A stretch of DNA of 64,000 bases from contig CALVEH010000004.1 in NCBI GenBank assembly GCA_944326545.1, positions 186,001 through 250,000 on the forward strand. Reading direction: 5' to 3'. The notes under the pieces were generated by a model. The model ran no database searches. It saw nothing but the letters and a program-made list of their open reading frames with translations, and had not been told where the DNA came from. The position numbers and the translations under genes were made by a program. The DNA comes from Candidatus Gastranaerophilales bacterium. Lineage in GTDB: Bacteria > Cyanobacteriota > Vampirovibrionia > Gastranaerophilales > Gastranaerophilaceae. Positions 16,130 through 62,414 of this stretch are shown piece by piece (the first letter of the stretch is position 1; each line of letters opens with the position of its first letter).

Positions 16130-16495
16130 ATAAGGTTTCAATATCTCGGCGAACTATGATAATTGAACAGCTAATCCATATATGACAAGTCCATTCGTGT
16201 TTTTTTATAAGGTTTCAATATCTTGGCGGACTATGATAATTAAACACCTCAATTATTAACATCAAGTCCATCTACGATTGTTTAGGGGCACAGCCCCTTC
16301 CGCTACTGAATGCTTGTATTAAAAGTATTTTTATAAGGTTTCAATATCTCGGCGAACTATGATAATTAAACACCTCAATTATTAACATCAAGTCCATCTA
16401 CGATTGTTTAGGGGCACAGCCCCTTCCGCTACTGAATGCTTGTATTAAAAGTATTTTTATAAGGTTTCAATATCTTGGCGGACTATGGCAAATCC
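16130..16495 (+). repeat. Family B tandem structured repeats (array B1)
   Basis: Four units start at 16130, 16207, 16333 and 16459. Lengths are 77, 126 and 126, with the last cut after ~37 bases where family C begins. Units open with ATAAGGTTTCAATATC and carry GGACT/AGTCC-type pairing arms; the 126-base units add AGGGGC-ACA-GCCCCT (16284-16298). The two long units are almost identical to each other. The array lies between converging genes. Confidence 0.9.
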
Positions 16496-44577: not shown

Positions 44578-45582
44578 GTGCAGAGTTTTATTATTGTTTT
44601 ATTGCTGATAATTTGTGTAGCCCTGATTGTTTGGCTTGTTTCCTTGTATTTTAAGTATCAGGAGCTTAAAAAAACTTTCAGAAATCATAAAAAAATCTTA
44701 AGAAGCGTTACTCGAACAATCAACTCTGTGCGCTACGGGAATTTGTATGAACGTGTTCCGGACGAGACTTCTTCTGTTTTACCTAATCTCTCTCAAAGCG
44801 TAAACTCTATGATTGAAGCGATTGTTGATAGAGAAGGTATGATAAAAGAATACCAAAGCGAGTTGAATAAAAAAATCAATGTTTTAACAGAAGTAGAAGA
44901 ACTCAAAGAAGATTTTGTTGCAACGCTTACGCATGATTTAAAAGTTCCGATTCTTGCCGAAAAAAATATGCTGGCATTTCTTTTAGACAATCGTTTTGGA
45001 GAACTTAACGACAGACAAAAAGAAGCCTTAGGATATTTACAAAGTTCAAACAAAGAGCTTGTTGAGCTTGTGGAAATTATTTTAGAAACATACAAACTTA
45101 ACGAAACAAAAATAGAACTCCACAAAGAAGAAAAAGACGTAAACAGTATGATTGAAGAAATCATTGAGCAAATGCGTCCGATTGCAGATACTGATTCTAT
45201 TACGATTAATTACTGGACTGAGTTCTACAATAGAGTTTCAATAGACGAGTTTTACATAAAAAGAGCGTTAAAAAACCTTATCCTAAACGCTATCTCTTTT
45301 AGCGAGCCAAGCTCAAAAATAGATGTCGCGCTATGCAATGATGACAAAAATATCTATATAAAAATCACAAACTACGGAAAAAGCATAAAACGAGAAGAAA
45401 TAGCTCACGTTTTTGATAAATACTACACTACTGCTAAAAAATTCCGTAAAGTAGGTACAGGGCTTGGGCTATACCTGTCAAACCGAATTGTTAAAGCTCA
45501 TAATGGGGAAATTATCATAGAAACTGATTCATACAATATCCCTTACACAACGTTTATGATTAAACTACCTATTTTTTTATAG
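44578..45582 (+). CDS. Sensor histidine kinase with one membrane helix
   Basis: The 334-residue kinase has a single N-terminal transmembrane helix (about 2-22), a HAMP-like and coiled region, the phosphoacceptor motif LTHDLKVPI near 120 and a HATPase domain with N box (LKNLILNAISFS) and G boxes (VGTGLGLYLS). No sensor domain outside the membrane, so it would sense a membrane or cytosolic signal. The start is GTG at 44578. No response regulator is adjacent. The stop codon TAG lies inside the first bases of the family B unit that follows (ATAGGG). Confidence 0.9.
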   Translation: MQSFIIVLLLIICVALIVWLVSLYFKYQELKKTFRNHKKILRSVTRTINSVRYGNLYERVPDETSSVLPNLSQSVNSMIEAIVDREGMIKEYQSELNKKINVLTEVEELKEDFVATLTHDLKVPILAEKNMLAFLLDNRFGELNDRQKEALGYLQSSNKELVELVEIILETYKLNETKIELHKEEKDVNSMIEEIIEQMRPIADTDSITINYWTEFYNRVSIDEFYIKRALKNLILNAISFSEPSSKIDVALCNDDKNIYIKITNYGKSIKREEIAHVFDKYYTTAKKFRKVGTGLGLYLSNRIVKAHNGEIIIETDSYNIPYTTFMIKLPIFL

Positions 45583-46195
45583 GGTTTCAATATTTTGGCG
45601 AGCTATGATAATTGAACACTTCAATTGTTGACGACAAGTTCATTCTCAACTGCTTAGGGCCGCAGGCCTTCCCACTACTAAATACATCATTTATAATTTT
45701 TATAAGGCTTCCTTATCTTGGTGAACTATGATAATTGAACATTTCAATTGTTGACTACAAGTTCATTCTCAATGTTTAGGGCCGCAGGCCTTCCCACTAC
45801 TGAATACATCATTTATAATTTTTATAAGGCTTCCTTATCTTGGCGGACTATGATAATTAAATACTTCAATTGTTGACGACAAGTTCACATTTTTTTGTTT
45901 CATAAGGCTTCAATATCTTGGCGAGCTATGATAATTGAACACTTCAATTGTTGACGACAAGTTCATTCTCAACTGCTTAGAGCCGCAGGCTTTCCCACTA
46001 CTAAATACATCATTTATAATTTTTATAAGGCTTCCATATCTTGGTGAACTATGAAAATTTCACAGCTCAATTATTGACGACAAGTCCACATTTTTTTGTT
46101 TCATAAGGCTTCCTTATCTTGGCGGACTATGATAATTAAATACTTCAATTATTGACAACAAGTCCACTTGGAGTTGTTTAGGGTGCTTTTTCATC
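45579..46195 (+). repeat. Family B tandem structured repeats (array B2, six units)
   Basis: Unit starts: 45579, 45702, 45824, 45902, 46025 and 46103, with lengths 123, 122, 78, 123, 78 and ~93. Long units carry AGGGCC-GCA-GGCCTT (45656-45670) or the compensated AGAGCC-GCA-GGCTTT (45979-45993); short ones end before that hairpin. Arms GAACT, GAGCT or GGACT pair with AGTTC or AGTCC about 35 bases later. The array lies between converging genes and holds no gene. Confidence 0.92.
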
Positions 46196-49456: not shown

Positions 49457-49490
49457 CAAAACCCCTAAATCTTTTGGTTTAGGGGTTTTA
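49457..49490 (+). terminator. Intrinsic terminator of the transporter gene
   Basis: AAAACCCCTAAA pairs with TTTAGGGGTTTT around TCTTTTGG; the first family B unit starts at its last base. Confidence 0.88.
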
Positions 49491-49669
49491 TATGGCTTCA
49501 ATATCTTGGCGGACTATGATAATTAAACACTAACTCATATATGACAAGTTCAATCTTGATTGTTTTATATGGCTTCAATATCTCGGCGGACTATGCCAAT
49601 TTGACACCTAATCTGTGGGCGACAAGTCCACTCACAACTGTTTAGGGGCACAGCCCCTTCCACTAAGGA
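49490..49669 (+). repeat. Family B repeats (array B3, two units)
   Basis: Units start at 49490 (77 bases, short type) and 49567. The second has AGGGGC-ACA-GCCCCT and is then cut after ~102 bases where family C starts. Arms GGACT with AGTTC (wobble) and GGACT with AGTCC. Confidence 0.88.
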
Positions 49670-50219: not shown

Positions 50220-50651
50220 ATGCAAATATTAAAACTTATGCACAAGCCGACATTAGTTAATGTAACAAAACTTGCAAGAGAAAATTGCAGAAAAGCTTAT
50301 GGTGATGATTATGCTTGTCTTATGTTAGAAGCTGTAAGAAACGTAACTCCTGAAGCTAAGAAAAAACCGACAAGTTTGTTACAACGTATCATTAACAAAT
50401 TTCGTCCTACTAAAGAATTAACTTTTAATGTATCAAGCAACGAAAATAAAGACTTTTTTGTTAATTCCAATCTTAAAATAGGCAGCTACAATTTTGTAAG
50501 CGAGCCAAAACCGTTCAACATTGCAGAAACATTGAATACTGTTAAAGGCTACAAAGCAGCAATGGAAAACGCAAAAGATGATGTCTTGCAACAGCTTGGT
50601 GATTTTAACAAAATGCGTAGAGATTTTAACCGCGCTATGTTTAGAAACTAA
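50220..50651 (+). CDS. Hypothetical 143-residue protein
   Basis: No recognised family. The product is soluble, basic and mostly helical, with one cysteine pair near the start (ENCRKAYGDDYACLMLEAVR). It ends in a helix with many charged residues (NKMRRDFNRAMFRN). A very good GAGAGGAA ribosome binding site lies before the ATG, and a palindrome overlaps the probable -10 box, so expression may be controlled. It follows a ~800-base repeat block. Nothing points to a function. Confidence 0.55.
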   Translation: MQILKLMHKPTLVNVTKLARENCRKAYGDDYACLMLEAVRNVTPEAKKKPTSLLQRIINKFRPTKELTFNVSSNENKDFFVNSNLKIGSYNFVSEPKPFNIAETLNTVKGYKAAMENAKDDVLQQLGDFNKMRRDFNRAMFRN

Positions 50652-51884: not shown

Positions 51885-51916
51885 TAAAGTTTAATTAAGA
51901 ATTATGCCGCCGATGA
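51885..51916 (+). promoter_or_regulatory. Possible sigma-28-type promoter of fliP
   Basis: TAAAGTTT (51885-51892) and GCCGATGA (51909-51916) match the -35 and -10 words of flagellar sigma-28 promoters, but the gap is 16 bases instead of the usual 11. A sigma-70 TTGACG follows at 51920. Weak support. Confidence 0.3.
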
Positions 51917-51968
51917 TTTTGACGCTAAAATATAATTATATATTGTTTGAGTATTAATTTGGGGAATT

Positions 51969-52730
51969 ATGAGAAGTTTACGTAATTTTGTAAAAGTTTT
52001 AACCGCAATGCTTATGGTGTTTTGCACTAACAGTGCGGTACATGCGGCAGTGGCTTTCCCTACAATTACTGTTGGGATGACAAATGCCAATACACCGCAA
52101 GAGTTTACACAAGGTGTGCAAATTCTTATATTACTGACAATTTTGACATTAGCACCGAGTATTTTTATTATGTGTACGGCATTTATAAGAATAATCATCG
52201 TGCTGGCGTTGACACGTCAGGCAATAGGTACAACAACTTTGCCTCCTAATCAGGTACTGGCAGGTTTGGCGTTGTTGTTGACATTTTTTGTAATGGCACC
52301 TACGTTTAATAAAATTAACGAGACGGCAATACAGCCTTATATGAATAACCAAATCACTCAACAGGTTGCTTTAGACAAAGCTATTAAGCCGTTGAGAGAG
52401 TTTATGATTCAGCATACGGAAGAAAAAGAGCTCGGCTTGTTTTTGAGTATGGCAAAAATTGAAAAACCGAAAAATTGGCAGGATGTTCCGACTTATACTT
52501 TGATTCCTGCATTTGTTCTGACAGAGCTTAAGACTTCTTTTAAAATAGGGTTTGTAATCTTCTTGCCGTTTTTGGTTATAGATATAGTTGTTGCAAGTAT
52601 TCTCGTCTCGATGGGGATGTTGTTCTTGCCTCCGACTACTGTTGCAATGCCGTTTAAGCTGATACTTTTTGTAATGATTGATGGCTGGTATCTTGTTACC
52701 AAAACACTTTTGGAAGGGTTTGTTACGTAA
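51969..52730 (+). CDS. fliP: Flagellar export gate protein FliP
   Basis: FliP forms, with FliQ and FliR, the export gate in the flagellar basal body. The 253-residue chain starts with a signal peptide (AMLMVFCTNSAVHA), followed by four transmembrane helices, with TLAPSIFIMCTAFIRIIIVL and SFKIGFVIFLPFLVIDIVVAS matching FliP/SctR family signatures. ATG with GGGG upstream. First gene of a compact fliP-fliQ-fliR-flhB operon; flhA is not in the window. Confidence 0.96.
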   Translation: MRSLRNFVKVLTAMLMVFCTNSAVHAAVAFPTITVGMTNANTPQEFTQGVQILILLTILTLAPSIFIMCTAFIRIIIVLALTRQAIGTTTLPPNQVLAGLALLLTFFVMAPTFNKINETAIQPYMNNQITQQVALDKAIKPLREFMIQHTEEKELGLFLSMAKIEKPKNWQDVPTYTLIPAFVLTELKTSFKIGFVIFLPFLVIDIVVASILVSMGMLFLPPTTVAMPFKLILFVMIDGWYLVTKTLLEGFVT

Positions 52731-52749
52731 TTAATAAGGATTTTTATAA

Positions 52750-53019
52750 ATGGAAGACGCAGTCTTTTTAACATTAACGCAGAATGTATTAATACTTATT
52801 TTGATTTTATCTACACCCGTACTTGTTATCAGTATGGTTGTGGGGTTACTTATAAGTATTTTTCAGGCAGTTACACAGATACAAGAATCTACTTTGACCT
52901 TTGTGCCAAAGATTATTGCAGGGATTCTTACGCTGATAATACTTTTGCCTTGGATGTTGAATATGTTTGTTTCAAGAACAACAGAGATGTTTGATTATAT
53001 TCAAACAATGATAAAGTAG
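52750..53019 (+). CDS. fliQ: Flagellar export protein FliQ
   Basis: An 89-residue protein with two transmembrane helices in hairpin form and the typical VGLLISIFQAVTQIQESTLT and FVPKIIAGI segment. It forms part of the FliPQR export gate. It starts 19 bases after fliP with AAGGA upstream and ends 21 bases before fliR. Confidence 0.96.
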   Translation: MEDAVFLTLTQNVLILILILSTPVLVISMVVGLLISIFQAVTQIQESTLTFVPKIIAGILTLIILLPWMLNMFVSRTTEMFDYIQTMIK

Positions 53020-53040
53020 GAAAAACGGGAGAAGATAATT

Positions 53041-53826
53041 TTGCAGCCGAATTTGCTAACATTATTATCACCTTCTAATATCCTGATTTTTGTACTGATT
53101 TTTACAAGAATCAGCGGTATGATTTTTTCTATGCCGTTGATTTCTACGTACCCGATACCTCAGCAGGTTAAAATATGGCTTGGGGCATTGGTTGCATTTT
53201 TGTTGTTTCCGATGGTAGCGGCAAATCATTCTTTTATCGTTCCACATAGTATGCCTGAGGTTTTGGTGTATTTGATAAGAGAATTTTCTATCGGCTTTTT
53301 AATCGGTTTTTGTGCAAACTTTTTGTTTGCTGCTGTACAAATCGGCGGTGAATTTGTGAGTATCCAAACAGGGCTTTCTATGAGCCAAGTTCTTGACCCT
53401 GCAACAGGTGAAGCTACTCAGATTCTTTCTCAAATGTATTCATATCTCGCAACAATGGTATTTATTGGGCTTAATGCCCATCAGTGGTTGTTTGCGGCTA
53501 TTTATAAAAGTTTTCAGGCATTTCCTCCGGGGATTGAATATATTTTTACAGGGGATGTTATTTCACAAGTATTGCATATGTCGGCAACGATGTTTTCTAT
53601 CGGCATAAGTATGATTTTGCCTATATTCTGTGTTATGTTTGTATCAGAAGTTCTTATGGGCTTTATGTCAAAGATGATGCCTCAGATGAACATCTTTATG
53701 GTTGCAATACCGCTTAAAATTTACATTGGTATCGTTTTGATGTTGATGTTTTTATCACCGACAGTTACGTATCTTGTTACGGTGACACAAAATTACCTTA
53801 AAGGAATACTCAATATCTTTATCTGA
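53041..53826 (+). CDS. fliR: Flagellar export protein FliR
   Basis: The 261-residue protein has six transmembrane helices and typical FliR parts: FTRISGMIFSMPLIS near the N-terminus, REFSIGFLIGFCANFLFAAV, and GGEFVSIQTGLSMSQVLDP. It completes the FliPQR gate. The start is TTG at 53041, with GGGAGAAG upstream. It is followed by flhB after 11 bases. Confidence 0.95.
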   Translation: MQPNLLTLLSPSNILIFVLIFTRISGMIFSMPLISTYPIPQQVKIWLGALVAFLLFPMVAANHSFIVPHSMPEVLVYLIREFSIGFLIGFCANFLFAAVQIGGEFVSIQTGLSMSQVLDPATGEATQILSQMYSYLATMVFIGLNAHQWLFAAIYKSFQAFPPGIEYIFTGDVISQVLHMSATMFSIGISMILPIFCVMFVSEVLMGFMSKMMPQMNIFMVAIPLKIYIGIVLMLMFLSPTVTYLVTVTQNYLKGILNIFI

Positions 53827-53837
53827 TAGGGAAAAAT

Positions 53838-54953
53838 ATGGCAGACGAAAAAACGGAAGAGGCGACCCCCAAGCGGCGGGAAGACGAGCGAAAAAAAGGG
53901 AATATTGCACGCAGTCAGGATATGACTGCAGCTTTGACCATGACAACGGGCGTTGGTCTGCTTTTTGTTATGTCTCCGATGATAATGGAGAAACTGAAAA
54001 ACCTTCTTTATTATACGCTTACGCACCTTGACCCCAAAAGTATAGAGACTGATGACATTATTGCTTTGTTTGCACCTTATGCAAAAATTACGGGCGAAAT
54101 GCTTTTGCCGTTTTTGTTGGGGCTTGCTGTGGTAACTGCCTTGATTATGAGAATACAGGTAGGGGCTTTGTTTGCTACGGAAAAAATAAAGCCTAAAATG
54201 GATAAATTTCAGCCTTCAAATATTGTTCAGGCCTTAAAAAGGATGTTTAACCCTTTTGAGCCTAAAAATATGATTGAAATATCAAAATCGTTTTTGAAAG
54301 TTGCAATAGTCGGTTATTGCGGTTTTTCTACTGTTATGGGCAGAAAAGACGAGTTACTCGGGCTTTTGGGGGTTGATATCCCGACAGCTTTTGCTGTTTT
54401 ATCGAGTATTTTAACTCAGATGATTTTAAATATTATCGTTGCGATGTTGATTATTGGGTTTATTGATAAAAAATATTCTGATTACGAATATAATAAATCT
54501 ATAAAAATGACTAAACAGGAGATAAAAGACGAATGGAAAAACATGGAAGGGGATCCTGTTATCAAGTCAAAACTCAAGTCTGCACAAATGCAGTTTATGA
54601 AACAAAAAATGCTCACAGCTGTACCTAATGCAGATGTTGTTGTTGCAAATCCTACTCATTTTTCTGTAGCGTTAAAGTATGACAAATCTATTGCGCCTGC
54701 ACCTGTTGTTGTTGCAAAAGGTGTTGATTATATGGCATTTAAAATTAGAGAAATTGCTAAAGCTAACGATGTTCCTATTGTAGAAAACAAACCGCTTGCG
54801 CGTTCTTTGTACAAACTTGTTAAAGTAGATGAAGTTATCCCGGCTGATTTGTATGTAGCAGTAGCAGAGATTCTTGCATTTGTTTACGGAAAAGACGGTG
54901 CCGCAGGGGCAAAACGTATTAAAAACCCAGACCTAAACCCTAATAGAAGATAA
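53838..54953 (+). CDS. flhB: Flagellar export switch protein FlhB, paralogue 2
   Basis: A 371-residue protein with the classical FlhB start EKTEEATPKRREDERKKG, four transmembrane helices and the cytosolic domain with NPTH at 271-274, which self-cleaves to switch export from rod/hook to filament proteins. The position after fliR makes this the standard flagellar FlhB. A related copy lies 11 kb away before fliA. Right after the stop begins a half unit of repeat B and element E2. Confidence 0.95.
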   Translation: MADEKTEEATPKRREDERKKGNIARSQDMTAALTMTTGVGLLFVMSPMIMEKLKNLLYYTLTHLDPKSIETDDIIALFAPYAKITGEMLLPFLLGLAVVTALIMRIQVGALFATEKIKPKMDKFQPSNIVQALKRMFNPFEPKNMIEISKSFLKVAIVGYCGFSTVMGRKDELLGLLGVDIPTAFAVLSSILTQMILNIIVAMLIIGFIDKKYSDYEYNKSIKMTKQEIKDEWKNMEGDPVIKSKLKSAQMQFMKQKMLTAVPNADVVVANPTHFSVALKYDKSIAPAPVVVAKGVDYMAFKIREIAKANDVPIVENKPLARSLYKLVKVDEVIPADLYVAVAEILAFVYGKDGAAGAKRIKNPDLNPNRR

Positions 54954-54954
54954 T

Positions 54955-54987
54955 TTGTCATAGTTTGTCAAGATATAGAAGCCTTAT
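54955..54987 (-). repeat. Family B half unit left of E2
   Basis: Read on the minus strand: ATAAGGCTTCTATATCTTG then ACAAACTATGAC, the first ~32 bases of a B unit. A similar half unit lies at 55209-55238 on the other side of E2, cut at nearly the same point. Confidence 0.7.
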
Positions 54988-55003
54988 AGAAAAATATTTT
55001 TGT

Positions 55004-55207
55004 ATGTTCATTTTTTCTTTTTGTTGCGACGCAAAAAGAAAAAACGAACCAAAAAAGAAAAACACGCTATATCAAAACAGACTCTAAAATATTTATCTTC
55101 AAAATTTTCTAACCGCTACGCTTAACAAAAATTTTGTGCGTAAATACAAAGAGTCTGTAATCAAAACTACAACGGCATAGCCGTACTACTGCTTACGCAG
55201 TTTTTTA
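55004..55207 (+). repeat. Family E element (copy E2), uninterrupted
   Basis: Reference copy without an A insertion. In order: 18-bp A/T-rich hairpin (55007-55051 region), nested CAGACTC/GAGTCTG hairpin with inner AAAATTTTC-type arms (to 55162), ACGGC-ATA-GCCGT and ACTGC-TTAC-GCAGT. 55004-55162 matches 22080-21922 with five differences. Confidence 0.8.
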
Positions 55208-55208
55208 A

Positions 55209-55586
55209 TGATAGTTAGCCAAAATATAGAAGCCTTATAAAAAACAAATACAAATGGAATTGTCGTCTACAGATTAGGTGTCTAATTGTCATAGCTTGCC
55301 AAGCTATTGAAACCATATGAAAAAAACATCAAGTAGTGGAAGGGGCTGTGCCCCTAAACAGTTGTGAGAGGACTTGTTGTCTACAGATTAGGTGTCTAAT
55401 TGTCATAGTCTGCCAAGATATTGAAACCTTATAACAAATACAAGTGGACTTGTCATATATGAGTTAGGTGTTTAGTTATCATAGTCTGCCGAGATATTGA
55501 AGCCTTATAAAACAATCAAGATTGGACTTGTTATATATGAGTTAGGTGTTTAATTATTATAGTCCACCAAGATATAGAAACCTTAT
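55209..55586 (-). repeat. Family B tandem structured repeats (array B4)
   Basis: Minus orientation. Units begin (at ATAAGG or ATATGG) at 55586, 55508, 55432, 55318 and 55238; lengths 78, 76, 114, 80 and a ~30-base half unit. The 114-base unit has AGGGGC-ACA-GCCCCT. One unit has a perfect ATAGCTT-GGC-AAGCTAT hairpin where most units have a broken one. Confidence 0.9.
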
Positions 55587-55662
55587 AAAATACTTAATTG
55601 CTTTTTAGAGCTGTGTTTTATAATATAAATTTGTTACTTTAAGCTTGTATAAAGGAGCGAAT

Positions 55663-56538
55663 ATGTTCTCATTTATTGATAATCATCGTCATTTTATATT
55701 CACGGTTTTGCCTGATTTTTTGCATAACAAATGGACGTTGATGGCAATCAACTTAATCATTTTTGCTATTATAATAAAATTATCTAACTTTTTTATAGAC
55801 AAATTTCTTGATAAAGTCAGCCAATACAAGGATGATTTTGAGTTTAAAAAACAGCTTGTAACCTTAAAATCAATAGCAAAATCTATCGTTGATACAATTA
55901 TTGTTGCGTTTGCAATTATTTATATTTTGAATGTTTTGGGCGTTGATATAAGACCAATTTTGACAGCTGCAGGGGTTTTGGGTGTGGCTGTAGGTTTTGG
56001 TGCAAAAAGATTTTTTGAAGATATCATTACAGGTGCATCTTTGCTTTTGGAAGGTCAAATCCGAGTAGGTGATTACATTGATATTTCAGGCCACGAAGGT
56101 GTTGTTGAAAAAATAGATATAAAACTTATCGTGTTGCGTGATTTACAAGGCAGGGTCCATTATATAAGAAACGGTATGGTTGATACTGTTGTTAATTATA
56201 CTAGAGAATTTTCTTATTACGTTTTTGAACTAGGCGTTAGCTACGATGCTGATATTAACTATGTAATCGAAACTTTAAAAGAGGTAGATGAAGATTTTAG
56301 AAACAATTCTCCTCTCAGAAACAATGTTCTTGCGCCTATGGAGATTTTAGGCGTGGACAAGTTTGATGATTCTGCTGTTATTGTAAAAACCAGAGTAAAA
56401 ACAAAACCGATAAAACAATGGGAAGTAGGTCGTGCTTATAACAAAGCTATTAAAGAAAAATTTGACGCAAAAGGTATCGAAATACCTTTCCCACAAAGAA
56501 CAATTCACATAACAAAAGAAGAATCAGAGTCTTTGTAA
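55663..56538 (+). CDS. Small-conductance mechanosensitive channel (MscS family)
   Basis: The protein (291 residues from the ATG at 55663, which has AAGGAG upstream; a TTG at 55645 is less likely) has three transmembrane helices, the last being the pore helix GVLGVAVGFGAKRFFEDIIT, followed by the MscS beta domain (GDYIDISGHEGVVEKIDIKL) and a C-terminal alpha/beta domain. These channels open under membrane tension and release solutes at hypo-osmotic shock. It lies alone downstream of array B4; rsfS follows after 59 bases. Confidence 0.92.
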   Translation: MFSFIDNHRHFIFTVLPDFLHNKWTLMAINLIIFAIIIKLSNFFIDKFLDKVSQYKDDFEFKKQLVTLKSIAKSIVDTIIVAFAIIYILNVLGVDIRPILTAAGVLGVAVGFGAKRFFEDIITGASLLLEGQIRVGDYIDISGHEGVVEKIDIKLIVLRDLQGRVHYIRNGMVDTVVNYTREFSYYVFELGVSYDADINYVIETLKEVDEDFRNNSPLRNNVLAPMEILGVDKFDDSAVIVKTRVKTKPIKQWEVGRAYNKAIKEKFDAKGIEIPFPQRTIHITKEESESL

Positions 56539-56597
56539 AAGTTCATGATAAAATAAAGGAACATCACACTTATAGTTAAAATAAAGGAAGTAAGAAA

Positions 56598-56996
56598 TTG
56601 GCAGAAATAAGCTCTTATAAATTGGCAAGCGTAATAGCGCGAATATTAGACGACAAACTTGCAAAAGATATTGCAATATTGAACATAAGCAACGTATCAG
56701 TGTTGGCAGACTTTTTTGTTATCTGCTCTGCTGATACAAATACTCAAGTAAAAGCTCTAACAGGTTATGTAAGAGACAGAGTAAAACATCTTTTTGAACG
56801 TATTCCTTCAGGAGAAGAAAACGACCTTAAAAACAGATGGAATCTTTTGGACTATGGCGATGTTATTGTGCACGTTTTGCATAGAGAAGAAAGAGAAACT
56901 TATGCTATAGAAAAATTCTGGTCACACGCTCACAAAATCGAAAGAGAAGACTGGGAAGCAGAATCAAAAGAATACTCGGAATACGAAAACAAATAA
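56598..56996 (+). CDS. rsfS: Ribosome silencing factor RsfS
   Basis: RsfS binds ribosomal protein uL14 and blocks subunit joining in starvation. The 132-residue chain has the family pattern: LASVIARILDDKLAKDIAIL, VLADFFVICSADTNTQVKAL, and DYGDVIVHVLHREERETYAI followed by EKFWSHAHKI. The start is TTG at 56598, with AAAGGAAG upstream. Its usual nadD neighbour is missing. A terminator lies eight bases downstream. Confidence 0.94.
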   Translation: MAEISSYKLASVIARILDDKLAKDIAILNISNVSVLADFFVICSADTNTQVKALTGYVRDRVKHLFERIPSGEENDLKNRWNLLDYGDVIVHVLHREERETYAIEKFWSHAHKIEREDWEAESKEYSEYENK

Positions 56997-57003
56997 TATT
57001 AGC

Positions 57004-57034
57004 AAAAGAGGCGAGATTAATCGCCTCTTTTTTG
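57004..57034 (+). terminator. Intrinsic terminator of rsfS
   Basis: AAAAGAGGCGA pairs with TCGCCTCTTTT around GATTAA-type loop, then T-rich sequence. Confidence 0.9.
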
Positions 57035-57106
57035 TAAATCGTGTGTCTGACAATGGAATTTTGTTTTTGCCGCATAGCTTTTGGCTCAAAAACTTTTTCA
57101 GACAAA

Positions 57107-57718
57107 TTAACAATCGCATTTATCTTTCTTTGTTAATTTTTTGTACTTGTCTTTTTGACATTGATTTAATATTTGCATAAAGCATTTTTTGTGGTCTTTT
57201 TGTTTATCTTTGATTTCTGATTTTAAATCTCTTATTTTTTGTCTTTGTTCATGTTTTGAGCGCCAAGAGCATTTTTGGCATTTCATTTTTTCAAGTTTAG
57301 CTTTTTCTTGTTTGCAGCACATTTTTAAAGGCGCAATTTCATCAAAGAATTTTTCGTCAATACATTTGCCTTTAACTCTTTGTTCTTGAGTTAGACCAAG
57401 ATTTGTATAAATTTCGCATCTTTGTTCAAAGTATTTTGTTTTCCAAGCCTGAATCTCTTCGCAAGAGTTGAACACCGGTGTAGAATTGCAGTTGCAGTCA
57501 GTTTTTCCGCAAGTAGGACAAGGCTCTTTTTTCTTTTCACAGCAAGGCTCTTTCTTTTGTTCGCAAGGTGTTGCGCAAGGTGAAGAAGCAGGGCAAGTAA
57601 CAGGTACAATAGATGCCACAGATGGTGAAGGGATAGACATAGACGGGGTCGGTGCAGCTGATACACTCATTATTGAACACATCATAGCAGCACAAAGTGT
57701 GATTGCGGTTTTTTTCAT
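57107..57718 (-). CDS. Exported Cys-rich protein with Spy/CpxP-like LTxxQ region
   Basis: The 203-residue precursor has a signal peptide (KKTAITLCAAMMCSIMSVSA). The mature part has about 20 cysteines, many in the first third: CEQKKEPCCEKKKEPCPTC, then GKTDCNCN. The second half is helical with LGLTQEQRVKGKCIDEKFF, resembling the LTxxQ motif of the periplasmic chaperones Spy and CpxP, with further Cys pairs (MCCKQ, CQKC). A metal-binding or disulfide-rich periplasmic protein is plausible. The cysteine density is far above the rest of the window. It has a strong AAGGAGAA site and no operon partner. Confidence 0.65.
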   Translation of the reverse strand: MKKTAITLCAAMMCSIMSVSAAPTPSMSIPSPSVASIVPVTCPASSPCATPCEQKKEPCCEKKKEPCPTCGKTDCNCNSTPVFNSCEEIQAWKTKYFEQRCEIYTNLGLTQEQRVKGKCIDEKFFDEIAPLKMCCKQEKAKLEKMKCQKCSWRSKHEQRQKIRDLKSEIKDKQKDHKKCFMQILNQCQKDKYKKLTKKDKCDC

Positions 57719-57845
57719 ATAATTCTCCTTACTCTTAAATAACTGTTGTTATTTACAAGTAAATTATAAGTGCTTCATTAATTGAGTAAACGACAGTGAG
57801 GCAAGGACTGTCGGGCTATTTTTGTTAGAGAATTATATGAACAAA

Positions 57846-60190: not shown

Positions 60191-61330
60191 ATGGCAGACA
60201 AAAAACAAAAGAAAAAAATTAAAGTTGCATTCCCTCATATGGGTAATATTTATATCGCTTGGGGTTCAGCGTTAAGAAGACTTGGCATTGAACCATATAT
60301 TCCGCCATACTCAAGTAAAAGAACATTGTCTTTGGGTACAAAAAACAGCCCCGAGTCTATTTGTTTGCCTTACAAACTTATTTTAGGCAACTTTATCGAA
60401 GCCATTGAAGGCGGAGCTGATTACGTTGCGATGATTTCTTCTCCCGGTATTTGTCGTCTTGGCGAATATGGTGCAGGTATCCAAAATACTTTGGAAGATA
60501 TGGGCTATCACGCAAACTATATCGAGCTTCAACTCTATGACGGCGTAAAAGGGATGTTTAAGTTTTTAACTGAATTAAGCGGTATCAAAAACCCTGTCAC
60601 TATCGTTAGAGCAATAGTTTTTGCTTTCAGAAAAGTATTTGCTACAGACAGAATGGAAAACCTTTTGTCTTACTACAGAGCAAGAGAAATACACGCAGGT
60701 GACGCTGAAAAAGCTTTCAAAAAAGGTATGAAGCTAATCTATGAAGCTAACCACTACAAAGAATTGAAAAAAGCAGAAAAACAAGCTGCAGAGCTTATCA
60801 AAAAGACAGAAATTGACCCTAAAAGAGATGTATTACACGTTGATTTAACAGGCGAAATTTATCTTGTACAGGATCCGTTCTCTAACCAAAATATTGAAAG
60901 AGAACTCGGTAAAATGGGCGTTCAAACAAGAAGAACTCTTACTGTATCAAGCTTTTTGAAAGATGCTATCATTCCAAAAATGTTTGTTAAAGGCGAAACT
61001 CACCTTGAACGTGCTGTAAGACTTGCAAAACCTTATCTTGCAAGAGATATTGGCGGTGACTCTTTAGAGTGCGTTTCTGACATTGTTTATGCTAACGAAA
61101 ACGGAAAAGACGGTATCATCCACGTTAGCCCGTTCACTTGTATGCCTGAAATCATGTCACAAAACTTCTTCCCTGCTATTAGAGAAAATTGCGAGATTCC
61201 TATTTTGCCTTTGATTCTTGACGAACAAACAGGTAAAGCTGGTTATATTACTCGTCTTGAAGCGTTTGTTGATTTGATGAGAAGACGTAAAAGAAAAAAA
61301 GAAATGGAACTTGCTGCTTCTTCTAAGTAG
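60191..61330 (+). CDS. Acyl-CoA dehydratase activase-related protein (DUF2229)
   Basis: The 379-residue protein matches the DUF2229-type part of the 2-hydroxyacyl-CoA dehydratase activator family: VAFPHMGNIYIAWGSALRRL, SPESICLPYKLILGNFIEAI, MISSPGICRLGEYG, and HVSPFTCMPEIMSQN near the end. Cysteines in ICLPYK, ICRLG and FTCMPE are the conserved ones that may hold an iron-sulfur cluster. It stands alone; the ATPase subunit and the dehydratase are absent from the window. The biochemical role of this form is not known. AGGAG lies before the ATG. Confidence 0.82.
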   Translation: MADKKQKKKIKVAFPHMGNIYIAWGSALRRLGIEPYIPPYSSKRTLSLGTKNSPESICLPYKLILGNFIEAIEGGADYVAMISSPGICRLGEYGAGIQNTLEDMGYHANYIELQLYDGVKGMFKFLTELSGIKNPVTIVRAIVFAFRKVFATDRMENLLSYYRAREIHAGDAEKAFKKGMKLIYEANHYKELKKAEKQAAELIKKTEIDPKRDVLHVDLTGEIYLVQDPFSNQNIERELGKMGVQTRRTLTVSSFLKDAIIPKMFVKGETHLERAVRLAKPYLARDIGGDSLECVSDIVYANENGKDGIIHVSPFTCMPEIMSQNFFPAIRENCEIPILPLILDEQTGKAGYITRLEAFVDLMRRRKRKKEMELAASSK

Positions 61331-61334
61331 TTTT

Positions 61335-61910
61335 ATAAGGTTTCTATACCTTGGCAGACTATGACAATTTGACACCTGAATCAATGACAACAAGTCCACT
61401 TGTATTTGTATAGCGGCACAGCCGTTTTCACTACTTGGTGCATTCAGGCTACTTTATTTTTGTAAGGTTTCTATACCTTGGCAGACTGTGACAATTTGAC
61501 ACCTGAATCAATGACAACAAGTCCACTTGTATTTGTATAGCGGCACAGCCGTTTTCACTACTTGGTGCATTCAGGCTACTTTATTTTTATAAGGTTTCTA
61601 TACCTTGGCAGACTATGACAATTTGACACCTAATCTGTAGACGACAAGTCCACTCACAACTGTTTAGGGGCACAGCCCCTTCCACTACTTGATGTTTTTT
61701 TCATATGGTTTCAATAGCTTGGCAAGCTATGACAATTTGACACCTGAATCAATGACAACAAGTCCACTTGTATTTGTATAGCGGCACAGCCGTTTTCACT
61801 ACTTGGTGCATTCAGGCTACTTTATTTTTATAAGGTTTCTATACCTCGGCAGGCTGTGACAATTAAATACCTATTTTATTAACAACAAGTCTGTTCGCTT
61901 AAGTTGCTGT
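61335..61910 (+). repeat. Family B tandem structured repeats (array B5, five units)
   Basis: Unit starts 61335, 61462, 61589, 61703 and 61830; lengths 127, 127, 114, 127 and ~81. Units 1, 2 and 4 have AGCGGC-ACA-GCCGTT (61412-61426 in the first); unit 3 has AGGGGC-ACA-GCCCCT. Unit 4 has a perfect ATAGCTT-GGC-AAGCTAT (61714-61730). Unit 5 pairs AGGCT with AGTCT where others pair GGACT with AGTCC. Confidence 0.92.
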
Positions 61911-61978: not shown

Positions 61979-62012
61979 CTAAAAACCCTCTCTTTTATGA
62001 GAGGGTTTTTAG
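61979..62012 (+). terminator. Intrinsic terminator beyond array B5
   Basis: AAAAACCCTCTC pairs with GAGAGGGTTTTT around TTTTAT. It lies ~650 bases after the DUF2229 stop, so a transcript ending here would include the whole B5 array. Confidence 0.8.
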
Positions 62013-62046
62013 AATATTTTGTATTAAGTTTTACAACTTTGTTTAT

Positions 62047-62414
62047 AAGACGGCATTCCTTCACTACGTTCAGTCAGCCTAGCCAAAATCCGCTGTCTTG
62101 GATTATTGGCGTTCGCAAGGTTTAGTATTACATTTCAAATTTTTCTTTGAAAAATTTTTCATTTCATTAACCTTGCTCACATGGGCAGCTCCGTGCCCGC
62201 CCAAAATCCGCTGTCTTGGATTTTCTTCACGCTCGGAACTGTCACTCGTTGTGCTTTGCTGTTACTCGTTTCGTTCCTCGCTCCCCTGGTTCGCTATGCT
62301 TCACCAGTACGAAAATCCGCCTCTTGGATTATTGGCAGTTCGCCGAAAGCGTGGTTTCGGCTCACAAGACGGCATTCCTTCACTACGTTCAGTCAGCCTA
62401 GCCAAAATCCGCTA
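62047..62414 (+). repeat. Family D repeats adjoining asnS
   Basis: AAAATCCGCTGTCTTGGAT occurs at 62085-62103 and 62203-62221, a near copy at 62312-62329 and the first ten bases again at 62404. A CATTCCTTCACTACGTTCAG word is found at 62054 and 62367. Also GGGCA-GCTCCG-TGCCC. The last copy runs into the asnS stop codon (CTA at 62412-62414). Confidence 0.8.

What the first reader, a model, noticed from the sequence alone, without database searches (positions are those of the whole stretch)
61335..61910. Family B units come in two sizes and form head-to-tail arrays
Unit lengths fall in two classes: 76-80 bases (no GC hairpin) and 114-127 bases (a 3' module of about 45 bases carrying the GC hairpin). 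Both start with the same ATAAGG/ATATGG-TTTCAATATC word. Five arrays of two to six units occur in one 64-kb window, always after the 3' ends of genes, three times between converging genes. Periods repeat exactly (126/126, 123/122/123, 127/127/127), and near-identical neighbouring units suggest amplification within the array.
Basis: seen in the sequence. Interest (0 to 1): 0.7.

Follow-up and report, generated by a model that had tools for sequence, protein, structure and literature searches.

The report
Modular intergenic repeat arrays in Gastranaerophilales
A short non-coding DNA repeat, built from three interchangeable modules, has multiplied to about 80 copies in one small branch of gut bacteria related to cyanobacteria and sits in head-to-tail rows between genes; it is a new example of a familiar kind of bacterial repeat (like BOX or MIRU) and not a new kind of system.

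Summary
61335-61891 holds five head-to-tail units (starts 127, 127, 114 and 127 bases apart), one of five such arrays in the window. In this genome (Candidatus Gastranaerophilales, 2.19 Mb) and one sister genome I found 161 unit heads. Internal unit lengths fall into 73-83 (57) and 104-127 bases (34), plus 16 longer ones, many interrupted by another repeat. Each unit is a conserved ~30-base head after a T-run, a variable body, and sometimes a GC hairpin. Arrays stop after one of these modules.

'Always after gene 3' ends' fails genome-wide: about half the arrays have a gene start on their 5' side, and some lie between divergent genes.

Amplification within arrays is supported. Units resemble neighbours in the same array far more than chance, and unit number and order differ between orthologous arrays of the sister genome. 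Only five of 23 same-genus genomes match the unit model, two of them abundantly.

Best explanation: a lineage-specific, non-coding, modular interspersed repeat whose arrays grow and shrink by recombination between heads. How it disperses is unknown: no Y1/RAYT transposase was found in either rich genome. There is no evidence for an RNA function. New member of a known kind (BOX, MIRU, BIME); interest modest.

The parts
61335..61461 (+). Unit 1 of the reported array, long form (127): head, body, GC hairpin, spacer, T-run
61462..61588 (+). Unit 2, long form (127), near-identical to unit 1
61589..61702 (+). Unit 3, long form (114); 61589 into unit 4 is 96% identical over 159 bases to the opposite-strand array at ~55.4 kb
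61703..61829 (+). Unit 4, long form (127); head as in the 55.3-kb array, body as in units 1 and 2
61830..61891 (+). Unit 5, terminal, head and body only, matches for ~62 bases
16130..16491 (+). Array of four heads: one short unit, two long units (126 each) and a terminal head of ~33 bases
45579..46183 (+). Array of six units (123, 122, 78, 123, 78, terminal ~81) between the stops of two convergent genes; the first head supplies the stop codon of the upstream gene
49490..49665 (+). Array of two units (77, then a terminal unit matching ~99 positions) after a terminator T-run
54958..55586 (-). Minus-strand array: units at 55586, 55508, 55432, 55318, a head followed by a ~220-base second repeat (55238), and a terminal head at 54987

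Best explanation
This is a lineage-specific, non-coding short interspersed repeat with three modules: head (T-run plus ATAAGGYTTCAATATCTTGGCNNRCTAT), body, and a GC-hairpin tail. Sparse relatives in other species of the genus have head, a shorter body and hairpin, so the hairpin form is probably older and short units have lost the hairpin, plausibly by deletion between the TGTTT before it and the T-run after it (inferred). The repeat spread to dozens of intergenic places in the ancestor of this genome and its sister by a mechanism I could not identify. Since then it has changed mainly in place: repeated heads let homologous recombination, slippage and gene conversion add, remove and copy whole units, giving head-to-tail arrays with locally near-identical units. 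Arrays may also serve as homology for inversions. Most likely it is a tolerated genomic parasite or passive repeat without a dedicated function. Shown: modular anatomy, dispersal, array differences between sister genomes, array-free orthologous sites. Inferred: recombination as the engine, lack of function, role in rearrangement.
For: About 80 copies in each of two sister genomes, 2-3 in three other same-genus genomes and none in 18. Terminal units stop matching after ~26-36, ~62-78 or ~94-106 positions, marking module ends. Nearest neighbour in the same array 31.3 of 75 versus 3.1 by shuffling. Different unit number and order at orthologous arrays and a one-unit difference with ends in the T-run/head word. 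Stretches shared between separate arrays. Orthologous sites without arrays: 45579 in G001, G014, G008; 16130 in G012; 54953 in the sister G015; the L021 site in G001.
Against: The head and the covarying hairpin hint at constraint beyond drift, though recent substitutions are not rarer in the head than in the body. No insertion target or mobilising enzyme was found. Only one sister genome was available, as a fragmented metagenome assembly, so some differences could be collapsed or mis-assembled repeats.
Confidence: 0.72

Rival explanations
1. The repeats are non-autonomous elements moved as single-stranded DNA by a Y1/RAYT (REP-type) transposase that reads the GC hairpin; arrays form because insertion goes next to the element's own T-run.
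For: Hairpin with compensatory changes; many long units read GTAG next to the hairpin on the opposite strand; the four other genomes with head or hairpin copies (G008, G012, G016, G019) all carry a Y1 gene.
Against: Y1_Tnp (PF01797) is not found in the two genomes that hold nearly all copies; where the Y1 gene could be read, its flanks held no family-B head or hairpin, and several held a different hairpin.
Confidence: 0.1
2. The arrays are transcribed and act as RNA: small RNAs, or 3' elements that stabilise or terminate the upstream message.
For: The 61335 array lies between a stop codon and a terminator-like hairpin; covariation in the GC hairpin.
Against: No Rfam match, no consensus fold, folding near shuffles, no promoter-like site, both orientations relative to genes and some arrays between divergent genes, several arrays downstream of terminators. 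The hairpin is followed by TTCC and not by a T-run.
Confidence: 0.08
3. The head is a site-specific recombination site and units are gene-less cassettes that circularise and re-insert at heads or T-runs, as attC cassettes do.
For: Fixed head plus T-run with variable far end; terminal heads at the ends of many arrays; segments 51.9-54.9 and 55.6-57.8 kb are in swapped order relative to G012, with an array at the joint.
Against: No genes in units, no recombinase linked to arrays among the neighbours tested, arrays scattered over the genome, no head-like palindrome; ordinary homologous recombination explains the same data.
Confidence: 0.05
4. Copies arise by reverse transcription and target-primed insertion: read on the other strand, each unit ends in the fixed head and an A-run, with variable 5' ends.
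For: Fixed head plus T-run with variable far end; in G008 a head-only copy is flanked by a 12-base near-duplication (ATCAATTTTATA/G) present once in G001.
Against: The only reverse transcriptase found in the genome has neighbours that look like a diversity-generating retroelement; only one such duplication was seen, across distant species.
Confidence: 0.03

Closest known systems
BOX elements of Streptococcus pneumoniae (PMC3049150)
   Same: Intergenic, modular (boxA, tandem boxB, boxC), length varies between strains through tandem modules, excess between convergent genes.
   Different: No sequence relation was tested or is claimed; here the whole unit including its head repeats, and the hairpin tail is optional.
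MIRU, mycobacterial interspersed repetitive units (PMC3914561, PMC2413405)
   Same: Short (46-101 bp) tandem repeats scattered over many loci, copy number variable at some of them; unit sizes overlap (77 bp in ETR-D).
   Different: Different lineage; sequence relation not tested; here a separate long class with a GC hairpin exists and arrays lie on both strands relative to genes.
REP/BIME with RAYT (PMC3733652, PMC2817692)
   Same: Intergenic hairpin repeats in many copies, partly in arrays; GTAG-like tetranucleotide beside the hairpin on the opposite strand of many long units.
   Different: No RAYT found in the two rich genomes; hairpin module often missing; units keep one orientation within an array, whereas REPs in BIMEs alternate; Y1 genes of this genus lie beside a different hairpin.

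Membership tests
Short interspersed modular repeats (general kind: BOX, MIRU, NIME, BIME) | Short non-coding repeat dispersed at many intergenic loci | tested here: met
   161 heads in about 50 arrays of two genomes, between ORFs
Short interspersed modular repeats (general kind: BOX, MIRU, NIME, BIME) | Modules in varying combinations | tested here: met
   Head, body and hairpin ends in terminal units; short and long internal units
Short interspersed modular repeats (general kind: BOX, MIRU, NIME, BIME) | Copy number differs between related genomes | tested here: met
   Orthologous arrays with different unit numbers
BOX (pneumococcal) | Sequence homology to boxA, boxB, boxC | not tested
   No BOX sequence was compared; the head pattern occurs only in this lineage in genome contigs
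MIRU | Sequence homology to mycobacterial units | not tested
   Not compared
REP/RAYT system | A RAYT (Y1) transposase gene in the same genome | tested here: not met
   PF01797 absent from G000 and G015, present in 8 of 23 same-genus genomes
REP/RAYT system | The transposase gene flanked by the same repeat | tested here: not met
   Readable Y1 genes of the genus lack family-B sequences beside them
Described structured RNA family | Match to an Rfam model at its gathering score | tested here: not met
   0 matches in the window
Described structured RNA family | Discrete transcript | not testable with these tools
   No RNA data
Integron-type cassette array | Linked integrase and gene cassettes | tested here: inconclusive
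   Units hold no genes; ten neighbouring proteins include no recombinase, but the whole genome was not searched for integrases

The most novel reading that the evidence does not exclude
The ~30-base head is the target of an unidentified site-specific recombinase, so that gene-less units circularise and re-insert next to T-runs; this would be a cassette system without genes that also reshuffles the chromosome, as hinted by the circular permutation of 51.9-57.8 kb with an array at the joint.
Probability: 0.05. Interest if true: 0.7.

Novelty: new member of a known kind. Interest (0 to 1): 0.33.

Why it matters
The literature searches made here found no description of such repeats in Gastranaerophilales or Melainabacteria. 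The arrays give ready strain-typing markers, probably explain part of the fragmentation of these metagenome assemblies (arrays lie at many contig ends of the sister genome), and offer a case where a modular repeat expanded in two sister species while close relatives hold few or no copies. If arrays cause the inversions seen at them, they shape gene order in this lineage.

Tried and rejected
RNA-family search, consensus fold and single-unit folds: nothing beyond the GC hairpin. GGACT/AGTCC pairing across the body: no covariation. A small reading frame ATGATAATT.. in the body: rejected because many units carry an in-frame stop after three codons (ATG ACA ATT TGA, read by eye). Y1/RAYT mobilisation. 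Reverse-transcriptase route: the only RT found sits beside genes that look like a diversity-generating retroelement. Selection on the head by counting recent substitutions: no deficit in the head. Search for a fixed insertion target: T-rich or TTTATA at some sites, not at others. Viral contigs: no match to the head pattern. The concatenated query was pasted as letters; conclusions use only the loci fetched afterwards.

Full report
WHAT IS THERE. The stretch 61335-61891 holds five head-to-tail units on the plus strand, starting at 61335, 61462, 61589, 61703 and 61830. The first starts 5 bases after the stop codon of the gene 60191-61330, which matches a domain found in CoA-enzyme activases. A terminator-like hairpin lies beyond the array at 61979-62012. 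Four more arrays lie at 16130, 45579, 49490 and, on the minus strand, 55586-54958. Tandem Repeats Finder finds them independently, and a profile of the head scores 37-50 on heads of the window against a maximum of about -5 on a shuffled window.

WHOSE GENOME. The window lies in contig C4 of a 2.19-Mb genome, 99.95% complete. A closely related genome, G015, is a Candidatus Gastranaerophilales MAG (BRZ_QD__bin64); most aligned gene stretches are 92-98% identical. A sequence model of the unit (R1) gave 78 matches here, 84 in G015, 2-3 in three other same-genus genomes and none in the remaining 18. A stricter exact pattern over the hairpin tail was found in 4 of 241 genomes sampled from the order, all in this genus.

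ANATOMY. From 161 heads of both genomes (82 and 79), the head reads ATAAGGYTTCAATATCTTGGCNNRCTATG, with several positions 97-100% constant, and follows a T-run (at least 4 T in the last 5 bases) in 152 of 160 cases, including 52 of 54 first units. A body follows, then in some units a GC hairpin of the kind TTTAGGGGCACAGCCCCTTCCACTA. Unit lengths of 107 internal units are 73-83 (57), 104-127 (34) and 138-413 (16). Many of the longest are units with a second repeat of roughly 220 bases or more inserted behind the head. Terminal units stop matching mainly after ~26-36, ~62-78 or ~94-106 positions, so head, body and hairpin behave as modules. In the sparse relatives (G012, G016, G019) most readable copies have head, a shorter body and hairpin, some of them in tandem (a G008 copy is). 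I infer that the hairpin form is older and that the short units of this genome arose by loss of the hairpin between TGTTT and the following T-run.

HAIRPIN. In 24 distinct hairpin sequences, 88% of pair cells are standard pairs against 78% in shuffles, and 12 cells change on both sides against a mean of 3.8 (none of 500 shuffles reach either value), through G-C to C-G swaps at two pairs. This control does not remove shared ancestry, and the number of pairs with such a change (2) is not above shuffles, so it supports but does not prove constraint on the single-stranded form. The pairing I suspected inside the body (GGACT with AGTCC) shows no covariation. Whole units show no consensus fold and fold about as well as shuffles, best z -2.1.

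POSITION. By my own ORF calls, the gene on the 5' side of an array points into it (3' end) in about 12 and away from it (start) in about 10 of 22 arrays of this genome; three array loci lie between divergent genes. In the window, three or more of five arrays in convergent gaps is mildly unusual (p = 0.04), and absence from divergent gaps is not (p = 0.37). The 3'-end rule is therefore a weak preference; [quoted passage not shown]

ARRAYS CHANGE. The nearest relative of a unit is in its own array 31.3 of 75 times here (shuffled mean 3.1, maximum 11.3) and 19.7 of 70 in G015 (mean 2.6, maximum 9.6). Orthologous arrays keep some variants but differ in number and order: at 16130, unit 1 corresponds to units 3 and 4 of G015 (1-2 differences) and unit 2 to its unit 2. 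L020/L068 have 2 and 7 heads, 45579/L046 6 and 3, L029/L062 3 and 2. At L030/L124 the sister lacks a whole unit and keeps only a head remnant, with the ends in the T-run/head word. Arrays also share stretches with each other: 61589 into unit 4 is 96% identical over 159 bases to the array on the other strand at ~55.4 kb. This fits recombination and conversion within and between arrays.

SITES WITHOUT THE ARRAY. At 45579 the two convergent genes nearly abut in G001, G014 and G008, and in several relatives the upstream gene ends at nearly the same codon as the array boundary, so the array now supplies the stop codon. At 16130, G012 has a terminator and ~45 bases between the aligned stretches where this genome has ~550. 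After the stop codon at 54953 the sister genome has no array, and the sequences diverge 5 bases after the stop. In G001 the L021 site is empty; G008 has a head-only copy there flanked by a 12-base near-duplication. No single target sequence fits all sites, so the dispersal step stays unexplained.

REARRANGEMENT. Within 44-64 kb, five breakpoints of synteny with G015 can be placed; three fall in gaps carrying arrays (49490, 55586, 61335), two do not, and one array (45579) has none. My own hypergeometric estimate over the 16 gaps is about 0.06, and other repeats share those gaps (49.7-50.2 and 62.0-62.4 kb), so the link is suggestive only. Undoing an inversion of about 49.7-62.3 kb would restore the order asnS then the gene at 50220 seen in G015, G012 and G016.

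MOBILISER. Y1 transposase (PF01797) was not found in either rich genome and is present in 8 of 23 same-genus genomes. Where the gene could be read, its flanks held no family-B head or hairpin, and several carried a different hairpin, GGTTGGGCATACYTGCCCAAC or a close variant, GTAG-tagged in two. All four other genomes with copies of the head or hairpin (G008, G012, G016, G019) do carry a Y1 gene, a correlation worth testing, but small. The one reverse transcriptase found sits beside genes that look like a diversity-generating retroelement.

VERDICT. A new, lineage-specific family of modular intergenic repeats forming variable tandem arrays: a new member of the kind that includes BOX (PMC3049150) and MIRU (46-101-bp tandem repeats at 41 loci; PMC3914561). 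It works like them; membership in either named family was not tested and is not claimed. RAYT mobilisation, RNA function and a cassette system are less likely, in that order.

Noticed in passing
G000:C7:3489-7046 (L148): A reverse transcriptase of ~358 aa beside a 149-aa ORF and an ORF with a lectin-like C-terminus; the set looks like a diversity-generating retroelement.
   Followed up: partly
G000:C7:82000-93300 (L017, L022): Arrays sit between genes that look phage-structural (a weak scaffold-protein match, a tail-tape-like protein by eye); arrays also occur beside matching stretches in the sister genome, as if a phage gene cluster were being kept or slowly decaying.
   Followed up: partly
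L018, L019, L025 (G000) and L052, L054 (G015): A multi-copy gene family that looks like autotransporter-type surface proteins carries an array 5 bases after its stop codon in each copy.
   Followed up: partly
window 55016-55238 (minus strand); also L016, L017, L022, L046, L047: A second repeat of ~220 bases or more with several inverted repeats (ACTGCGTAAGCAGTA, ACGGCTATGCCGT) follows a family-B head and ends in the next T-run.
   Followed up: partly
window 51885-57822 versus G012:C1:97716-102923: Two adjacent segments are in swapped order (circular permutation) relative to G012, with the 55586 array at the joint.
   Followed up: partly
window 62040-62400: A different repeat family beside the reported array; parts of this stretch match many places in nearly all same-genus genomes.
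   Followed up: no
L083, L085, L089, L090: Y1 transposase genes of sister species have a hairpin GGTTGGG...CCCAAC just upstream, GTAG-tagged in two, resembling REP-type repeats of their own.
   Followed up: partly
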